DNA from: Tubulanus polymorphus
Taxonomy: Eukaryota; Nemertea; Palaeonemertea; Tubulaniformes; Tubulanidae
Direction: 5' to 3'
NCBI RefSeq assembly: GCF_964204645.1
Contig: NC_134029.1
Location: 17,812,450 to 17,876,449 of the forward strand
Length of the DNA: 64,000 nt
Part shown: positions 45,422 to 60,875 of the stretch, piece after piece
Layout of the letters: the number at the start of each line of letters is the position of its first letter
Position numbering within the stretch: the first letter of the stretch is position 1
Made by a program: the position numbers and the translations under genes
The notes under the pieces: generated by a model
Seen by the model: only the letters and a program-made list of their open reading frames with translations
Database searches by the model: none
Told to the model about the DNA's origin: nothing

Positions 45422-46450
45422 ATGCAGGGTAGAAGATGCAAAATTTCACCGCGCCTATATAGGAAAATCGTGGCCGCGATCCTAATTGTTTGCGCATTAT
45501 GTTTGGCGTTAGCGTTGTTGTTAGGAGGACTTCTAAACTCTCAAGACTATGACGCAGTCGCTAGCTATAAGAAATTAATACGTATTGATCGAAGTGGTTT
45601 CGATGAACCGACGTTAACTGCGTTATTCACTGGCCGACTCGGAAATGTAATGTTTCAATATGCGGCTTTATATTCAACGGCTGAAAAGTATTCGTTGTTA
45701 CCTGTTGTGCCCTCAAAATTTCAGCTGTCGTCGATTTTTGAAATCACATCTCCTTGTCAATCGGGTGTTTCGACTCACGAAGTATTCAGGGAGCGAGTAA
45801 ATTATACAGGACGATACGACAAAAAGATCAATTCATTTCATCTCAATCCTAGCCATAATTCGTATCATATCAAAGGATTTCTTCAGTCTTTTAAGTATTT
45901 CGAAAACTACTCGCATAAGATCCGCCGACAATTTACCTTCCGGAAACGAACGCGCCATAAAGCGAAAAACTTCATCGATGACAATGTTAGTAATTATTTG
46001 GAACGCATTGGAAGGCGCAATTCGTTTAAGAAGTTACAGTTAGTTGGAATACACGTTCGTAGAGGCGACAATCTGTCTGTTTTTAATATCGGATTCGGAT
46101 ACGTGGTTGCCGGTAAATATTATATTAAACGTGCCATGCAAAAGATGACGTCAATGTATAAGAATATTCTGTTTATAGTTGTGTCGGATGATATCGTTTG
46201 GTGCGAGGATAATATCAGATATTACAACAATACGATATTTTCCCGTGGCAACAGCGCGGCAGTTGATATGGCAATCTTATCTATGTGCAATCACGTGATT
46301 ATGACGACTGGTTCATTTGGCTGGTGGGCGTCGTGGCTCGCTAACGGTACCACGATTTATTACAAAGATTGGCCTCGTCCTGGCTCGAATCTATCGCTAG
46401 AAGTCGGACACGAAGATTACTTTCCACCGACCTGGATCGGACTGTCTTGA
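45422..46450 (+). CDS. GT11 alpha-1,2-fucosyltransferase-like protein
   Basis: Family GT11 enzymes transfer fucose from GDP-fucose to the 2-position of terminal galactose in the Golgi. The start is ATG 45422 with A at -3; the frame is open a little upstream (to 45377) but with no earlier ATG. The 342-residue product has a basic tail, a membrane anchor at residues 16-38 and a luminal domain. Family motifs are present: RLGNVMFQYAALY (72-84), the GDP-fucose-binding HVRRGD (211-216), VSDDIVWCEDN, and TTGSFGWWASW (295-305). Length matches FUT1/FUT2 (about 340-365). Six N-glycosylation sequons (such as NYT, NLS, NGT) fit a luminal protein. The coding region is intronless, common in this family. Acceptor and linkage are not proven by sequence. 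Confidence 0.93.
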   Translation: MQGRRCKISPRLYRKIVAAILIVCALCLALALLLGGLLNSQDYDAVASYKKLIRIDRSGFDEPTLTALFTGRLGNVMFQYAALYSTAEKYSLLPVVPSKFQLSSIFEITSPCQSGVSTHEVFRERVNYTGRYDKKINSFHLNPSHNSYHIKGFLQSFKYFENYSHKIRRQFTFRKRTRHKAKNFIDDNVSNYLERIGRRNSFKKLQLVGIHVRRGDNLSVFNIGFGYVVAGKYYIKRAMQKMTSMYKNILFIVVSDDIVWCEDNIRYYNNTIFSRGNSAAVDMAILSMCNHVIMTTGSFGWWASWLANGTTIYYKDWPRPGSNLSLEVGHEDYFPPTWIGLS

Positions 46451-51781: not shown

Positions 51782-51787
51782 CACGCA
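51782..51787. repeat. Left 6-bp target-site duplication (CACGCA)
   Basis: CACGCA immediately outside the left end of the palindromic element; the identical hexamer at 54929-54934 follows the right end. Beyond these six bases the flanks differ, which defines a genuine insertion. Confidence 0.8.
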
Positions 51788-51978
51788 AGTAATAGGGGTT
51801 TAGTTGTTTCATACCAAAGGTCGAACGGTCGAGAAATTTTCCAAATGTTAAAATAACAATAATTTCTACTTGAATTAGTCGCGTACACTCCTAATTCAAG
51901 TAGAAATTATTATTATTTTAACATTTGGAAAATTTCTCAACCATTCAACCTTTGTGAAACAACTAAACCCCTATTACT
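51788..51978. repeat. Left terminal hairpin of the palindromic element
   Basis: Arm 51788-51878 and arm 51891-51978 are inverted copies around a 12-base loop (tcgcgtacactc). Both arms start or end with the element terminus AGTAATAGGGGTTTAG, so the terminus occurs twice on each side and four times in total. The inner arm lacks 3 bases and has several substitutions compared with the outer. Confidence 0.9.
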
Positions 51979-52144
51979 CTTAAAATATTCATATACATAA
52001 ATAACATTCAAATTGACAGATTATTCAATATAAAAGTGTGAGCTCTTATAGAATAGATATATAGATATATTTTAAACATATTTCAATATTTATATTTGTA
52101 TGAGTTAGATTTTTGAACATTAAAAGTGTTAGTAAAGTGTGATT

Positions 52145-52327
52145 GAAATAATTCATATATAAATCATTGAATATTTATATTTATATGCGTTAAATTCTTA
52201 TTTTCGATATAAAAAGTAACGAGTAATTAACGAGTGAAATAATTCATATTTAAAACAGTGAATATTTATATTTATATGCGTTAAATTCTTATTTTATGTT
52301 TAAAAGTAACGAGTAATTAACGAGTTG
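52145..52327. repeat. 91-bp tandem duplication in the leader of the left arm
   Basis: gaaataattcatat at 52145 recurs at 52236, and both copies end in agtaacgagtaattaacgag. The second copy runs directly up to the ATG at 52328, so it may hold promoter sequence. The mirror copy lies at 54386-54568 in the right arm. Confidence 0.8.
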
Positions 52328-52942
52328 ATGAAAATATCAATTTTAATAACAAAGTTACTTATAAATATGAATGAACAGATACTACATTTCAAAGATATCG
52401 ATTTAAATGAATTAGAAAAATATTTTACAATTAAAAATTTCATTCCTATTAAAGATTTGATTAAAACTGCGCGTCTTCGTTTTCAAGTGAAAAATATTAC
52501 TGAATTAGTGTTTAAAAATCATTATCTGATAATAGAGTTATCGAATGATAAAGATAAAATCTTATTCAATACAATAATTCCAAAATTCACAACATTTGAT
52601 GGAATAGATAAACATTTAATAATTACAGATGAAATGCAATCACTTTTTAATAATGAAAATTCACATAAAACATTATTTTTACACTTACGTTATTGCCCAT
52701 TCAGAGAATGCTATGTTATGTTTTTCAGATTACAAGAAAAGAGATTTATCCCTGACATTCCAAATGAAAAATCATATAAAGATGTTGGAATTCAATGTAA
52801 CTTAGATAATGAAATTGTTGCGCCTAAATATAATCCTAATGAAAGCGTTTTATGTAATTGTGTAAAAAATATTATACTCGAAGCAATAAATCACACCATC
52901 TTAAATCAAAATATCGTAACACATATTAAAGATAAAAACTAA
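52328..52942 (+). pseudogene. Left-arm copy of the element protein, frameshifted near its C-terminus
   Basis: This copy is nearly identical to the minus-strand copy at 53786-54385 for the first 176 codons. It then has two extra bases in the run tgtgtaaaaaatatt (about 52861, against tgtggaaaatatt in the other arm), so its last 30 residues are unrelated and the zinc-finger-like tail is lost. The frame is otherwise open from ATG 52328 to a stop at 52940-52942. Confidence 0.8.
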
Positions 52943-53025
52943 TAACATAACTGATGATTTAAAAACATTAAAACATCATTTTGATTTCAGTAACTATCCT
53001 AAAGATCATGAATTGTTTAGCATGA

Positions 53026-53694
53026 AATGATAAATTGTTCGACTGTTGAAATGATAAGACAGTTGAAATGATAAATTGTTTGACAGTTGAAATGATAAAT
53101 TGTTTGACAGTTGAAATGATAAATTGTTTGACAGTTGAAATGATAAATTGTTCGACTGTTGAAATGATAAATTGTTTGACAGTTGAAATGATAAATTGTT
53201 TGACAGTTGAAATGATAAATTGTTTGACAGTTGAAATGATAAATTGTTCGACTGTTGAAATGATAAATTGTTTGACAGTTGAAATGATAAATTGTTTGTC
53301 AGTTGAAATGATAAATTGTTCGACTGTTGAACAATTTATCATTTCAACTGCCAAACAATTTATCATTTCAACTGTCAAACAATTTATCATTTCAACTGTC
53401 AAACAATTTATCATTTCAACTGTCTTATCATTTCAACAGTCGAACAATTTATCATTTCAACAGTCGAACAATTTATCATTTCAACTGCCAAACAATTTAT
53501 CATTTCAACAGTCACACAATTTATCATTTCAACAGTCGAACAATTTATCATTTCAACTGTCAAACAATTTATCATTTCAACTGTCAAACAATTTATCATT
53601 TCAACTGTCAAACAATTTATCATTTCAACTGTCAAACAATTTATCATTTCAACTGTCTTATCATTTCAACAGTCGAACAATTTATCATTTCATG
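53026..53694. repeat. 24-bp minisatellite spanning the palindrome axis
   Basis: The unit is close to ATGATAAATTGTTTGACAGT plus TGAA, with variants (ttcgact, ttgtcag). About 12 full units plus one 17-bp short unit (atgataagacagttgaa) run forward up to the axis; about 14 full units plus two short ones run in reverse after it. The axis is 53322-53328 (gactgtt) between gataaattgttc and gaacaatttatc. Being a multiple of three it stays open in several frames on both strands, but those frames are by-products and not genes. Confidence 0.95.
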
Positions 53695-53785
53695 CTAAAC
53701 AATTCATGATCTTTAGGATAGTTACTGAAATCAAAATGATGTCTTAATGTTTTTAAATCATCAGTTATGTTATTAGTTTTTATCT

Positions 53786-54385
53786 TTAATATGTGTTATG
53801 ATATTTTGATTTAAGATGGTGTGATTTATTGCTTCGAGTATAATATTTTCCACAATTACATAAAACGCTTTCATTAGGATTATATTTAGGCGCAACAATT
53901 TCATTATCTAAGTTACATTGAATTCCAACATCTTTATATGATTTTTCATTTGGAATGTCAGGGATAAATCTCTTTTCTTGTAATCTGAAAAACATAACAT
54001 AGCATTCTCTGAATGGGCAATAACGTAAGTGTAAAAATAATGTTTTATGTGAATTTTCATTATTAAAAAGTGATTGCATTTCATCTGTAATTATTAAATG
54101 TTTATCTATTCCATCAAATGTTGTGAATTTTGGAATTATTGTATTGAATAAGATTTTATCTTTATCATTCGATAACTCTATTATCAGATAATGATTTTTA
54201 AACACTAATTCAGTAATATTTTTCACTTGAAAACGAAGACGCGCAGTTTTAATCAAATCTTTAATAGGAATGAAATTTTTAATTGTAAAATATTTTTCTA
54301 ATTCATTTAAATCGATATCTTTGAAATGTAGTATCTGTTCATTCATATTTATAAGTAATTTTGTTATTAAAATTGATATTTTCAT
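53786..54385 (-). CDS. Element-encoded protein with C-terminal zinc-finger-like tail, intact copy
   Basis: A 199-residue protein starting at ATG 54385 (the frame is open one TTG codon further). It is Lys-, Ile- and Asn-rich, with no signal peptide or membrane span. The last 24 residues carry C176-N-C178, then NKSHH and a final H196, spaced C-x-C-x11-H-x5-H, a plausible metal-binding finger (CNCGKYYTRSN ... SKYH). I do not recognise the rest. The 24-bp repeats lie just downstream of its stop and the 91-bp duplication just upstream of its start. By position it is the only candidate function of the element: a DNA-binding or end-binding role is possible, but that is inference. Confidence 0.7.
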   Translation of the reverse strand: MKISILITKLLINMNEQILHFKDIDLNELEKYFTIKNFIPIKDLIKTARLRFQVKNITELVFKNHYLIIELSNDKDKILFNTIIPKFTTFDGIDKHLIITDEMQSLFNNENSHKTLFLHLRYCPFRECYVMFFRLQEKRFIPDIPNEKSYKDVGIQCNLDNEIVAPKYNPNESVLCNCGKYYTRSNKSHHLKSKYHNTY

Positions 54386-54734
54386 CAACTCGTTAATTAC
54401 TCGTTACTTTTAAACATAAAATAAGAATTTAACGCATATAAATATAAATATTCACTATTTTAAATATGAATTATTTCACTCGTTAATTACTCGTTACTTT
54501 TTATATCGAAAATAAGAATTTAACGCATATAAATATAAATATTCAATGATTTATATATGAATTATTTCAATCACACTTTACTAACACTTTTAATGTTCAA
54601 AAATCTAACTCATACAAATATAAATATTGAAATATGTTTAAAATATATCTATATATCTATTCTATAAGAGCTCACACTTTTATATTGAATAATCTGTCAA
54701 TTTGAATGTTATTCATGTATATGAATATTTTAAG

Positions 54735-54928
54735 AGTAATAGGGGTTTAGTTGTTTCATATCAAAGGTTGAATGGTTGAGAAATTTTCCAAATGTTAAAA
54801 TAATAATAATTTCTACTTGAATTGGGAGTGTACGCGACTAATTCAAGTAGAAATTATTGTTATTTTAACATTTGGAAAATTTCTCGACCGTTCGACCTTT
54901 GGTATGAAACAACTAAACCCCTATTACT
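54735..54928. repeat. Right terminal hairpin of the palindromic element
   Basis: Mirror of the left terminal hairpin: arm 54735-54825, loop about 54826-54837 (contains gtgtacgcga), arm 54838-54928. The outer arm is closer to the outer arm of the left end than to its own inner partner (shared gttcgaccttt and ggtatgaaac), as expected if the whole palindrome, and not each hairpin, is being kept identical. Confidence 0.9.
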
Positions 54929-54934
54929 CACGCA
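54929..54934. repeat. Right 6-bp target-site duplication (CACGCA)
   Basis: Exact copy of 51782-51787 directly after the element terminus ...CTATTACT. Confidence 0.8.
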
Positions 54935-56712: not shown

Positions 56713-57969
56713 TTAAGGGATAGATATACAAATATACATAAAACACTTATTCGGCTGAGGGCAGGTCTTACTGTCTAATTTATCTTGCCATATTTTCAGC
56801 AGGTTTTCAGGACTTTGTTCGTTCACCATGATGTAAAGTTTGGTCTCGCACCAGTTTTTCAATATGCTTGTAGGCTGCAAAACAATTATGCGTTCATCAC
56901 TGAAATGTTTAACACCTTGTATTCTCCGTGCTATAATACCCGTCCACCAGACATCATCGTTTATTATAAGTGTAGTTTGTAACGCCGTTCTCCACATATC
57001 GGGAATTATATTCGCTGTGAACCCATAGCCGGGACCGGAACAGTGATTCGGGAAAAACGGTAGCGGCCACGTGTCCCGGCTAACGTAATATTCCTTTTTT
57101 GGATCTCGTTCTACGGTCGGGTGGGCAAAAACCCTACACATGAAATATGCGTTCTGATCTAGGTGCGCATCTAACGCAGACGTAAACTGTTCGGCGTCCA
57201 AGTACGTGTCATCGTTGATTTTGATGACGTATTTCGCATGCAAACAGTAATCATGAACCCATTTAATCATGGCGCCCGTTTTTAGTTTGTTACGCTTATC
57301 TTCCATATTCACCTGTATGATATCGCCATACATTTCCATTTCGATAGACAGAAACTTCTTCCAGAGATAATCCGTAGTAGCGGGTAATCCGAGTAAGAAA
57401 GCAAACCGAATTTCCTTAGTTGATTTGGCCCAAGTAGCGCGAATCGCCCGGCGCTGTTGATAGCTATGTGCACGTGATATGATAACCACAATAGTTTTGG
57501 GATTCCCCCAACATATTGTGGTATTGTTGTTAACGAATTTTATATCTCGTAAATAGCCCATAAATGGAATCGGCGGCCCTGTCTCGGCCATTCTGAGTGC
57601 ATTCTGGATTTTCCAATCTTTAATTTTTTCGACGATTAATCCATGCATGAGACAGAGAAAAACCAGACATGATGCAGCTAAAACAATCGATTTGTATCTG
57701 AAAATAGATTATAAATTTACTTAAGAGCCGGGCGAATTTCAGAAAAAGGCCTTCAGCTTGTAAGAAGACAGAAATTTTCGCTGCACTCGCACACATCACC
57801 TTTGCCACTTGTTTTATCCACGCGTAAAATTTTCGTTTTGGCCCCACCATTCCTACCAGGTTACGATTCATAGATATTACGAATAACTATATATTGCAAT
57901 GTAAACAAACCTTGAACGAAGCTTATTGCGCAACCTCCTGACCATGCCAATGTAGCGAATCCTTGTCAT
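56713..57969 (-). CDS. GT31 beta-1,3-galactosyl/GlcNAc-transferase-like protein, two exons
   Basis: GT31 enzymes add galactose or GlcNAc in beta-1,3 linkage from UDP-sugars in the Golgi. Exon 1 is 57911-57969 (ATG 57969) and exon 2 is 56713-57697; the 213-bp intron has GT (gtttgt) and AG (ttttcag) and the split codon AG/A gives arginine. The 347-residue protein has a basic tail (MTRIRYIGMVRRLRNKLRSR), an anchor at about 24-43 and a luminal domain with family motifs: RRAIRATW (102-109), KINDDTYLD with the metal-binding NDD at 181-183, CSGPGYG (239-245) and DDVWWTG (267-273). The usual DDD and EDV motifs appear here as NDD and DDV, both known variations. Donor and acceptor cannot be read from sequence. 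Confidence 0.93.
57911..57969 (-). CDS. GT31 gene exon 1 (cytoplasmic tail)
   Basis: A 59-bp exon with the start codon, 19 full codons and two bases of the next. It supplies the positively charged cytoplasmic tail typical of type II Golgi enzymes. Without it, exon 2 has its first ATG only at 57648, in the middle of the membrane anchor. Donor: tcaag followed by gtttgt. Confidence 0.8.
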
Positions 57970-59142: not shown

Positions 59143-60875
59143 GTTAAGTTAAGTTAAGTTAAGTTTATTGCTCCACAATTAACTCATTGCACAGAGCTAA
59201 ACATACAATACAATATATTTATAGAAAAAGAAAAAACAAAAAACAAAAGAGAAAATTACAATACACGTATATACACATAATAACAACACGGCAAACATGA
59301 CAGATATTAATAGAATAATTGCAAACCTTTTTTGATATATATCGCCAAATTGAGAAGGAGTGATCCAGATAAGTTGAAAAGATTTTGGAGTTGACTTTGC
59401 TGTGGGGAGCGCCAGAAATATCTAGGGATGAATTTAGTTCTTAAATTTTGTGAAAATGAACACACTAAGAGAAAATGAAATTCGTCACCAACCACTCCCA
59501 TATTACACTTAGTGCATATTCTTTCATTGCGCATTCTTTCATATGGCAATATCTACCCTTCTCTATAGGTAACCTATGATTGGAGCATCTGAAACGGCAC
59601 ATCTCTACACGGAGGTTTAAAGGGATGGAAGTTAAATAATCTTCAAATTTGAAACCGGCATGATTTTTAAATTTTCTGTTAGATACAGCAATTGGTGATT
59701 CATTGATTTTCGCGGATATACTGGTCAGTCAGTCTTTGTCGCAAAAGAGCAGTTAGGTGGTTGATGTCAGGGACTGCCTGGTTCTCCCAGAAGTAACCGA
59801 GGCCATTTCTCACAAGGATATTCTTAACATGAATAATCCACTTATTAGATTGTCCATTGATGTGCATATAATAACCATGTCTATTTATTAACGAAGAAAT
59901 ATTGTTTGTTTCATTGACTAATTTTGCCCAAAATTTCACCATTCTGATTTTAACAAAAATATCCAAGGGGTGGCTCCCCAGTTCACCACAGATGAAAATA
60001 CTAGGGGTGGATCGCTTTACTTTAAGTATGTACTTGAAAAAAGATAACTGGACTCGTTCAAGTACCTGGAGGTTTTCAATACCCCAAATTTCGCAGCCAA
60101 ACAATACAATTGGTAATACCATGCTATCAAAAAGTTTTAAAGTTATGTCTAAGTCTAGGGAGTGCTCGCTGGCCTTCTTTAGTACAAAAAATAACGATTT
60201 CCTTGCTTGCTCCGCTAGAGTTTTACGACATTGGACATAGGATCCTGTATAAGAAAAAATTATACCCAGGTATTTATAACTATCAACTATTTCCAGTTTC
60301 TGGCCATTTATAAAGAAATCAGGTATGATCCGTAACCGTCGCTTAGAAAAAATCATCACTTTCGTCTTATCACAATTAATACATAATTTCCACTTTTTCA
60401 GTAGGCATACAGGTTATCAATTAAATGCTGATGTGCTTGTGGACTATCAGCGAATAGGACCGTATCATCGGCGTACATGAGTATTAAAAGTTTAAACCAC
60501 ACACTGTTCTGTTGACCGGGTTTGAAGAAGCTTATGGCTGGGCTATTGTTTTCGAGTAAATAACCTTCCAGGTCATTTAGAAATATTGAAAATAATATTG
60601 GGGAGCGGTTCTCACCTTGTCTTACCCCAGTGAAACTTTCAAAAAATTCTTATCTTGTTTCATTAGAAAAGACACAGGACTTGATGCCTTGATAAATATT
60701 ATGGATAACGTTGAGAATTTTGCCTGTGATACCATTATTAATTAGTTTATGCCAGAGTGCTTTTCGCCAAATGCTATCAAAAGCCTTCTTATAGTCGATA
60801 TAAATGCAGTATAATTTACCATTACTGTTCAAAAAAGCGTCTAGAAGTGTTTTAACACAACCAGGTTGAAAATTG
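59143..60875 (-). pseudogene. Truncated LINE retrotransposon with reverse transcriptase and C-terminal Cys/His domain
   Basis: The 3' end is marked by four to five agtta repeats (59143-59164) and tttattgctcc. On the minus strand, from upstream to downstream: YIDYKKAFDSIWRKALWHKL (RT palm, near 60790), GVRQGENRSPILFSIFLNDL (near 60610), catalytic YADD at 60464-60475, KYLGIIFSYTGSY and LPIVLFGCEIWG (60359-59700), then ICTKC ... GDEFHFLLVC (59549-59307), a conserved Cys/His tail of such elements. It is broken by an in-frame TAA near 60650 and frameshifts near 60410 and 59550, and 5'-truncated near 60875, so the endonuclease is absent. Clade unresolved. Confidence 0.85.

What the first reader, a model, noticed from the sequence alone, without database searches (positions are those of the whole stretch)
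51782..54934. A self-complementary 3.1-kb mobile element with a mirrored zinc-finger-like gene
Seen: both halves are reverse complements, the ends are AG...CT, and an exact 6-bp duplication (CACGCA) flanks the whole. Each half has the same order: hairpin, tandem leader, 200-codon gene, minisatellite. Known: Polinton/Maverick elements make 6-bp duplications and begin with AG; foldback elements have long inverted repeats. Inference: this is a non-autonomous relative, or an inverted dimer of a hairpin-ended linear DNA, that integrated as one unit. Neither a fully palindromic element with one mirrored small gene nor this protein is something I recognise as described. Of everything in the window, this is the best candidate for a new system.
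Basis: partly seen in the sequence, partly recalled or inferred. Interest (0 to 1): 0.88.

Follow-up and report, generated by a model that had tools for sequence, protein, structure and literature searches.

The report
Palindromic Polinton offshoots with mirrored gene
A 3.1-kb stretch that reads the same on both strands is a small mobile element derived from a Polinton (a virus-like giant transposon), best explained as two mirror copies of one Polinton end; the same genome holds more such palindromes that seem to have arisen more than once, a fossil record of how these linear elements may mis-copy themselves.

Summary
Window 51788-54928 is a near-perfect palindrome (97% to its own reverse complement), flanked by an exact 6-bp duplication (CACGCA), with ends AGTAATAG...CTATTACT.

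The same TIR bounds 18-30 kb elements: nine of nine TIR pairs read have 6-bp duplications (eight exact), and pieces of them encode PolB and an RVE integrase. So this is a non-autonomous Polinton/Maverick derivative.

It is not unique. Neighbouring listed copies of the gene within 12 kb are convergent 17 times, divergent 3, same-strand 7. Of fourteen small elements checked, 7 have exact duplications, 1 has one mismatch, 2 match displaced by one base, 4 gave none. In 7 of 9 palindromes in the gene tree the two arms are sisters, and most centres differ (one pair, L058/L064, shares central sequence). Inverted dimerisation, or copying between arms, before integration fits better than passive spread of one palindrome.

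A new variant of a known kind; the gene's function is unknown.

The parts
51782..51787 (.). left 6-bp target-site duplication CACGCA
51788..51978 (+). left TIR, a self-complementary hairpin beginning AGTAATAGGGG
   Evidence: shared with 18-30 kb elements
51979..52327 (+). left leader with ~91-bp tandem repeats
52328..52942 (+). left copy of the gene; ORF of 204 codons, frameshifted after about codon 180 relative to the 199-codon form
52940..53030 (+). fragment of Polinton PolB (codons 1171-1204)
53023..53331 (.). left 24-bp minisatellite, 13.2 units; the palindrome's centre lies where it meets the mirrored array
53319..53692 (.). right (mirrored) 24-bp minisatellite, 16.2 units
53685..53775 (-). 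mirrored PolB fragment
53786..54385 (-). right copy of the gene; intact 199-codon ORF with C-terminal zinc-finger-like tail (motif recalled)
   Evidence: at least 154 genome matches
54386..54734 (-). right leader (mirror)
54735..54928 (-). right TIR hairpin ending CCCTATTACT
54929..54934 (.). right 6-bp target-site duplication CACGCA

Best explanation
It is a non-autonomous Polinton/Maverick derivative: a head-to-head inverted dimer of one rearranged Polinton end (hairpin TIR, leader, ~199-codon accessory gene, PolB remnant, minisatellite). Shown: Polinton-type ends and 6-bp duplication; TIR shared with elements whose pieces encode PolB and RVE integrase; further palindromes, mostly with different centres; arms of one palindrome more alike than arms of different palindromes in most cases tested. 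Inferred: during replication of a linear Polinton molecule the copying strand turned back (snap-back or template switch) at the minisatellite or other internal sites, or an element with similar cassettes at both ends lost its middle and its arms were made alike through a folded single-strand (panhandle) intermediate. Either way a one-ended fragment regains two proper TIRs and could be copied and integrated in trans by the PolB and integrase of full-size relatives.
For: TIR shared with 18-30 kb pairs; 6-bp duplications at 9 of 9 pairs read, 8 exact. PolB motif words, and 71% identity over 580 aa to a PolB in a PF03175-positive stretch; integrase PF00665 E 1.9e-9. PolB remnants in the element itself. 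17 convergent, 3 divergent, 7 same-strand neighbours within 12 kb. Inverted matches of 300 bp or more in 15 of the 15 convergent pairs fetched, of 17. Exact 6-bp duplications in 7 of 12 small elements. Arms are sisters in 7 of 9 palindromes in the gene tree and in L058 and L064 in a second tree. Own-partner TIR is best in 7 of 9 elements with comparators. Of 120 pairs of 16 palindromes, 3 had inter-gene stretches covering each other by 60% or more. L063, noticed from TIR spacing rather than from the gene, is also a palindrome with a mirrored relative of the gene.
Against: No autonomous Polinton carrying the exact window end was delimited at both ends. No duplication was found for 4 of 12 elements (L026, L055, L056, L057; for L056 the ends seen give TTACTG/TAACTA, 4 of 6 alike), and two more match only if displaced by one base. 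Inverted matches are partly implied by convergent genes: in L066 and L067 the longest is 300-334 bp, mostly the gene. One mirrored element (L072/L020) has different genes in its arms, which fits loss of a middle or joining of two halves better than snap-back of one half. L058 and L064 share 287 nt of central sequence at 79%, so they may descend from one palindrome. The window's gene copies fall in an unresolved fork and L017's pair groups with L046. L025 and L044/L073 are closer to each other at the TIR than to their own partners. Most of the set was gathered with the gene as bait.
Confidence: 0.75

Rival explanations
1. One ancestral palindromic element arose once and spread like an ordinary miniature transposon family; symmetry is simply inherited.
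For: The window gene copy is 97-99% identical to copies in several other palindromes, so they are close kin. L058 and L064 share central sequence.
Against: Inherited arms should group by side, not by element; 7 of 9 arm pairs are sisters, and L058 and L064 arms group by element (94.5-94.7% within, 86-88% between). Only 3 of 120 pairs of palindromes had inter-gene stretches that cover each other by 60% or more, and in L017/L018 and L054/L055 the best alignments do not run across the middle in one arrangement.
Confidence: 0.1
2. Arms became alike after integration by chromosomal gene conversion between the two arms.
For: Would also give sister arms.
Against: Some palindromes have diverged arms (89% in L058, 92.6% in L056), so conversion is not keeping them all alike; both alike and diverged ones group by element.
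Confidence: 0.15
3. Rolling-hairpin replication with covalently closed hairpin ends, as in parvoviruses.
For: TIRs are hairpins; whole palindromes would be natural dimers.
Against: Hairpin orientation is fixed relative to the element end in 14 of 14 ends of seven delimited pairs. The relatives encode a PolB; a Rep-type protein was not searched for.
Confidence: 0.07
4. Assembly artefact (false inverted duplication).
For: Inverted repeats are hard to assemble.
Against: The two arms differ by about 3% overall including a frameshift, and seven elements have different exact duplications at their outer ends.
Confidence: 0.03

Closest known systems
Polinton/Maverick elements (full length)
   Same: 6-bp duplication, AG...CT ends, TIRs; elements with the same TIR encode PolB and RVE integrase.
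   Different: The window element is 3.1 kb, palindromic, and holds only a 34-codon PolB remnant and one mirrored accessory gene.
Foldback elements (Drosophila FB, Galileo)
   Same: Long inverted arms with internal tandem repeats (recalled; Galileo seen only in a search listing).
   Different: Ends, duplication length and coding relatives are those of Polintons; FB and Galileo duplication lengths are recalled, not looked up.
Palindromic defective genomes of adenoviruses (recalled; the search listed no paper I could use)
   Same: Inverted dimer of one end of a linear replicon copied by a PolB.
   Different: Here they are integrated in a genome with target duplications and several keep an intact small gene.
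[quoted passage not shown]
   Same: A replication error at inverted repeats gives an extrachromosomal inverted dimer that later integrates.
   Different: ODIRA concerns chromosomal origins and homologous integration; here the ends look like integrase substrates.

Membership tests
Polinton/Maverick | 6-bp target-site duplication | tested here: met
   CACGCA at the window element; 9 of 9 larger TIR pairs read, 8 exact
Polinton/Maverick | AG...CT ends and terminal inverted repeats | tested here: met
   AGTAATAG...CTATTACT; PMC8097293 passages give (AG)3//(CT)3 and (AGT)2//(ACT)2 end-motifs with 6-bp duplications for vertebrate Mavericks
Polinton/Maverick | encodes type B DNA polymerase | tested here: not met
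   window element: only a 34-codon fragment. A larger element with the same TIR has it, so the window element is a derivative, not a full member
Polinton/Maverick | encodes RVE-type integrase | tested here: not met
   no such ORF in the window element; present in an element with the same TIR, L015, PF00665 E 1.9e-9
Polinton/Maverick | FtsK-like ATPase, cysteine protease, jelly-roll capsid proteins | tested here: inconclusive
   only separate pieces of larger elements were read; a 415-aa ORF is a capsid candidate by size and position only, with no Pfam, PHROG, NCBIfam or PDB sequence hit; ATPase and protease were not sought
Polinton-derived non-autonomous element | shares termini and duplication length with Polintons of the same genome but lacks their replication and integration genes | tested here: met
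rolling-hairpin (parvovirus-like) replicon | terminal hairpins occur in both orientations (flip/flop) | tested here: not met
   14 of 14 ends of seven delimited pairs have one polarity
Foldback/Galileo elements | FB- or P-type duplication length and transposase | not tested
   no search for a P-type transposase was made; the 6-bp duplication and Polinton kin already place the element elsewhere

The most novel reading that the evidence does not exclude
The palindromes are a class of Polinton satellites that replicate through a fully self-folding single strand: each displaced strand snaps into one hairpin, so every cycle re-copies one arm onto the other, keeping arms alike and TIRs functional. 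The mirrored gene encodes a small zinc-finger-like factor acting on the shared TIR that helps these satellites use, or compete with, their helper Polintons.
Probability: 0.2. Interest if true: 0.8.

Novelty: new variant of a known kind. Interest (0 to 1): 0.55.

Why it matters
Polinton replication is inferred from gene content and, to my knowledge (recalled), has not been watched directly. A genome with many palindromes, mostly with different centres and many with their own 6-bp duplication, offers a natural record of inverted-dimer intermediates. It makes models of Polinton replication (snap-back, panhandle, rolling hairpin) testable from sequence. It also suggests how a linear element that has lost one end can regain two, and it points to an uncharacterised accessory gene kept in the offshoots.

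Tried and rejected
Protein identity: Pfam, PHROGs, NCBIfam and PDB sequence searches gave nothing for the 199-aa protein; no relative by tblastn in viral contigs. AlphaFold2 on the single sequence gave mean pLDDT 37, not usable, so no fold search was made.

Left ends of the Polinton-like stretches behind L013 and L022 were sought and not found in the pieces fetched (L027, L028), so it stays open whether full elements carry the gene at one or both ends.

PolB in the L014 copy gave no PF03175 hit in Pfam at E 0.1, no NCBIfam hit and no polymerase in PDB sequences; it was tied to PF03175 through a 71%-identical homologue.

Selection on the gene: among five ORFs from small elements there are 7 synonymous and 9 amino-acid-changing single-site differences (p 0.025); among seven ORFs, 15 and 20, with 2 complex codons left out (p 0.0014). 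The test treats sites as independent and ignores base bias, so the evidence is weak to moderate. Pairwise dN/dS was below 0.6 for most pairs, but 0.67 for the window against L017b and 1.36 and 1.81 for the two L017 copies against L019; the two L017 copies differ by 2 changing and 0 silent sites.

Literature: no paper on palindromic or mirrored Polinton derivatives was noticed in the listings (listings only, of an open-access library). In the papers opened by passages, 'palindrom' does not occur in PMC6035795 or PMC8097293; PMC2836005 (passages) was not used further.

Full report
What is there. Window 51788-54928 is a palindromic element of 3,141 bp, flanked by CACGCA on both sides, ends AGTAATAG...CTATTACT. 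It aligns to its own reverse complement at 97.0% over 3,156 columns. Order in each arm: a ~191-bp hairpin TIR, a leader of ~91-bp repeats, the gene, ~91 bp coding for PolB codons 1171-1204, and a 24-bp minisatellite. The minus-strand gene copy is an intact 199-codon ORF; the plus-strand copy is frameshifted after about codon 180.

Kin with the same ends. The terminal 24-mer has 279 forward and 272 reverse matches at up to 3 mismatches; the same letters read backwards have none (only the first places were listed). TIRs come in pairs 18-30 kb apart. I read the flanks of nine pairs. Eight were parsed: seven exact 6-bp duplications, and gaagtc/gtagtc at C5:11118192. The ninth, C6:13550930, reads GGGGGT on both sides, by eye from the printed left flank and the right flank. 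So 9 of 9, 8 exact. Pieces of three of these elements, each about 18 kb, were read: one holds a 1,343-aa PolB ORF with motif words A, B and C (motif names recalled), one an RVE integrase (PF00665, E 1.9e-9), one a 415-aa ORF that is a capsid candidate by size and position only. The L014 PolB gave no PF03175 hit, but is 71% identical over 580 aa to the L076 PolB, which lies in a stretch that PF03175 matches at 70.9 bits. PMC8097293 (passages) gives 6-bp duplications and AG- and AGT-type ends for vertebrate Mavericks; PMC4028283 (passages) lists PolB and RVE integrase among conserved Polinton proteins.

The gene. It has at least 154 matches in the genome (150 of 508 candidates scored, so a lower bound) and no match in Pfam, PHROGs, NCBIfam, PDB sequences or the viral contigs. 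Homologues (called g207 in the scripts, about 30-50% identical) lie beside the TIR in Polinton-like stretches. In L022 the order from the TIR is PolB codons 1-90, g207, HNH, two ORFs, integrase; L061 has PolB 1-90, g207 and part of HNH; in L013 the gene is followed further in by a 100-aa ORF and a PolB. I could not delimit such an element at both ends.

Many palindromes. After merging, 150 listed hits give 129 loci; neighbours within 12 kb are convergent 17 times, divergent 3, same strand 7. I fetched 15 of the 17 convergent pairs; each has an inverted match of 300 bp or more. This is partly implied by the convergent genes: in L066 and L067 the longest match is 300-334 bp, mostly the gene. In L068 the inverted region runs past the element, so it is not a simple case. 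L063, noticed from the spacing of two exact TIR 24-mers and not from the gene, is also a palindrome, with a mirrored g207. Duplications, 12 elements: exact in the window element, L017, L018, L019, L025, L063, L066; one mismatch in L058; not found at the element ends in L026, L055, L056, L057 (proper ends were not recognised in L026, L057 and one side of L055; the L056 ends seen give 4 of 6 letters alike). Two more, L072/L020 and L044/L073, match if displaced by one base on the left. L054, L064, L065, L067 and L068 were not tested. L025 and L044/L073 keep only one gene copy between inverted arms.

How they arose. In a tree of 35 gene copies, both arms of nine palindromes are present (L026 and L063-L068 were not placed). 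Seven pairs are sisters: L018, L054, L055, L056, L057 and L058 with starred support, L019 at 97/0. The window pair lies in an unresolved fork but each is the other's nearest row; L017's pair groups with L046. A small second tree puts L058 arms together and L064 arms together, both starred. Over the first 130 bp of the TIR, ten elements were compared: the own partner is closest in 7 of 9 with comparators (L072/L020 aligned over 80 bases only); L058 had no comparator that passed; L025 and L044/L073 are closer to each other. Centres, as read from alignment coordinates, differ: minisatellite against minisatellite (window), gene codon ~134 against minisatellite (L019), within or beyond the 100-aa ORF (L017, L018, L026, L058), 100-aa ORF against gene (L054), within the gene (L055). 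Comparing the stretch between the genes in 16 palindromes, 3 of 120 pairs cover each other by 60% or more: L017/L018, L054/L055, L058/L064. Only L058/L064 has an alignment inside the asymmetric middle in one arrangement, 287 nt at 79%. If those two share an ancestor palindrome, their element-wise arms speak for copying between arms while the element spreads; if not, for two separate dimerisations. One element, L072/L020, has g207 in one arm and the 199-aa gene in the other, while minisatellite and 100-aa ORF are 91% alike. This favours loss of a middle, or joining of unlike halves, for at least that element.

Mechanism. Shown: Polinton-type insertion of whole palindromes; mostly different centres; within-element likeness. 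Inferred: an inverted dimer made before insertion, by snap-back or template switch, or by deletion followed by copying between arms in a folded strand. The known analogue of an error that makes an inverted dimer is ODIRA (PMC4689423, passages); palindromic defective adenovirus genomes are recalled. Rolling-hairpin replication is disfavoured because hairpin polarity is fixed at 14 of 14 ends of seven pairs. Later gene conversion is disfavoured by palindromes with 89-93% arms.

Function of the gene. Weak to moderate sign of purifying selection. At least one gene copy is open in the window element, L017 (both), L018, L019, L025 and L026 (both); most copies in the more diverged palindromes have stops. 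A role at the TIR is a guess from position and the zinc-finger-like tail (motif recalled).

Novelty. Non-autonomous transposons are common knowledge (recalled); palindromic Polinton derivatives formed repeatedly were not seen in the listings. I file it as a new variant of a known kind.

Noticed in passing
window about 1200-28700 and beyond: Long satellite array with a ~922-bp unit and regular longer variants (families of 44 and 36 members listed), like a higher-order repeat.
   Followed up: no
L061 (G000:C10:6058400-6064900): Three head-to-tail copies, 2,744 bp apart, of a Polinton end holding PolB codons 1-90, g207 and the start of HNH; two TIR hairpins lie in the stretch held.
   Followed up: partly
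L003 and L004 (G000:C2 near 14.14 and 12.63 Mb): 99.94% identical over 3.2 kb in opposite orientation, including outside the TIR; gene fragments lie about 20 kb from each TIR in mirrored positions. Recent inverted duplication or assembly duplicate.
   Followed up: no
L023 and L024 (G000:C7:6625000-6646500): Mirrored region with two pairs of the gene facing outward, about 12 kb between the inner copies; larger inverted duplication of unknown nature.
   Followed up: partly
L072/L020 (G000:C6:13911490-13917788): Mirrored element whose two arms carry different homologues (g207 and the 199-aa gene) with alike minisatellite and 100-aa ORF.
   Followed up: partly
L022, L061: PolB codons 1-90 lie directly before g207; open frames of about 290-310 aa at several g207 places may be PolB-g207 fusions.
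   Followed up: no
window 45422-46450, 56713-57648, 59700-60356: ORFs that look to me like two glycosyltransferases and a reverse-transcriptase fragment (by eye, no search; ORFs).
   Followed up: no
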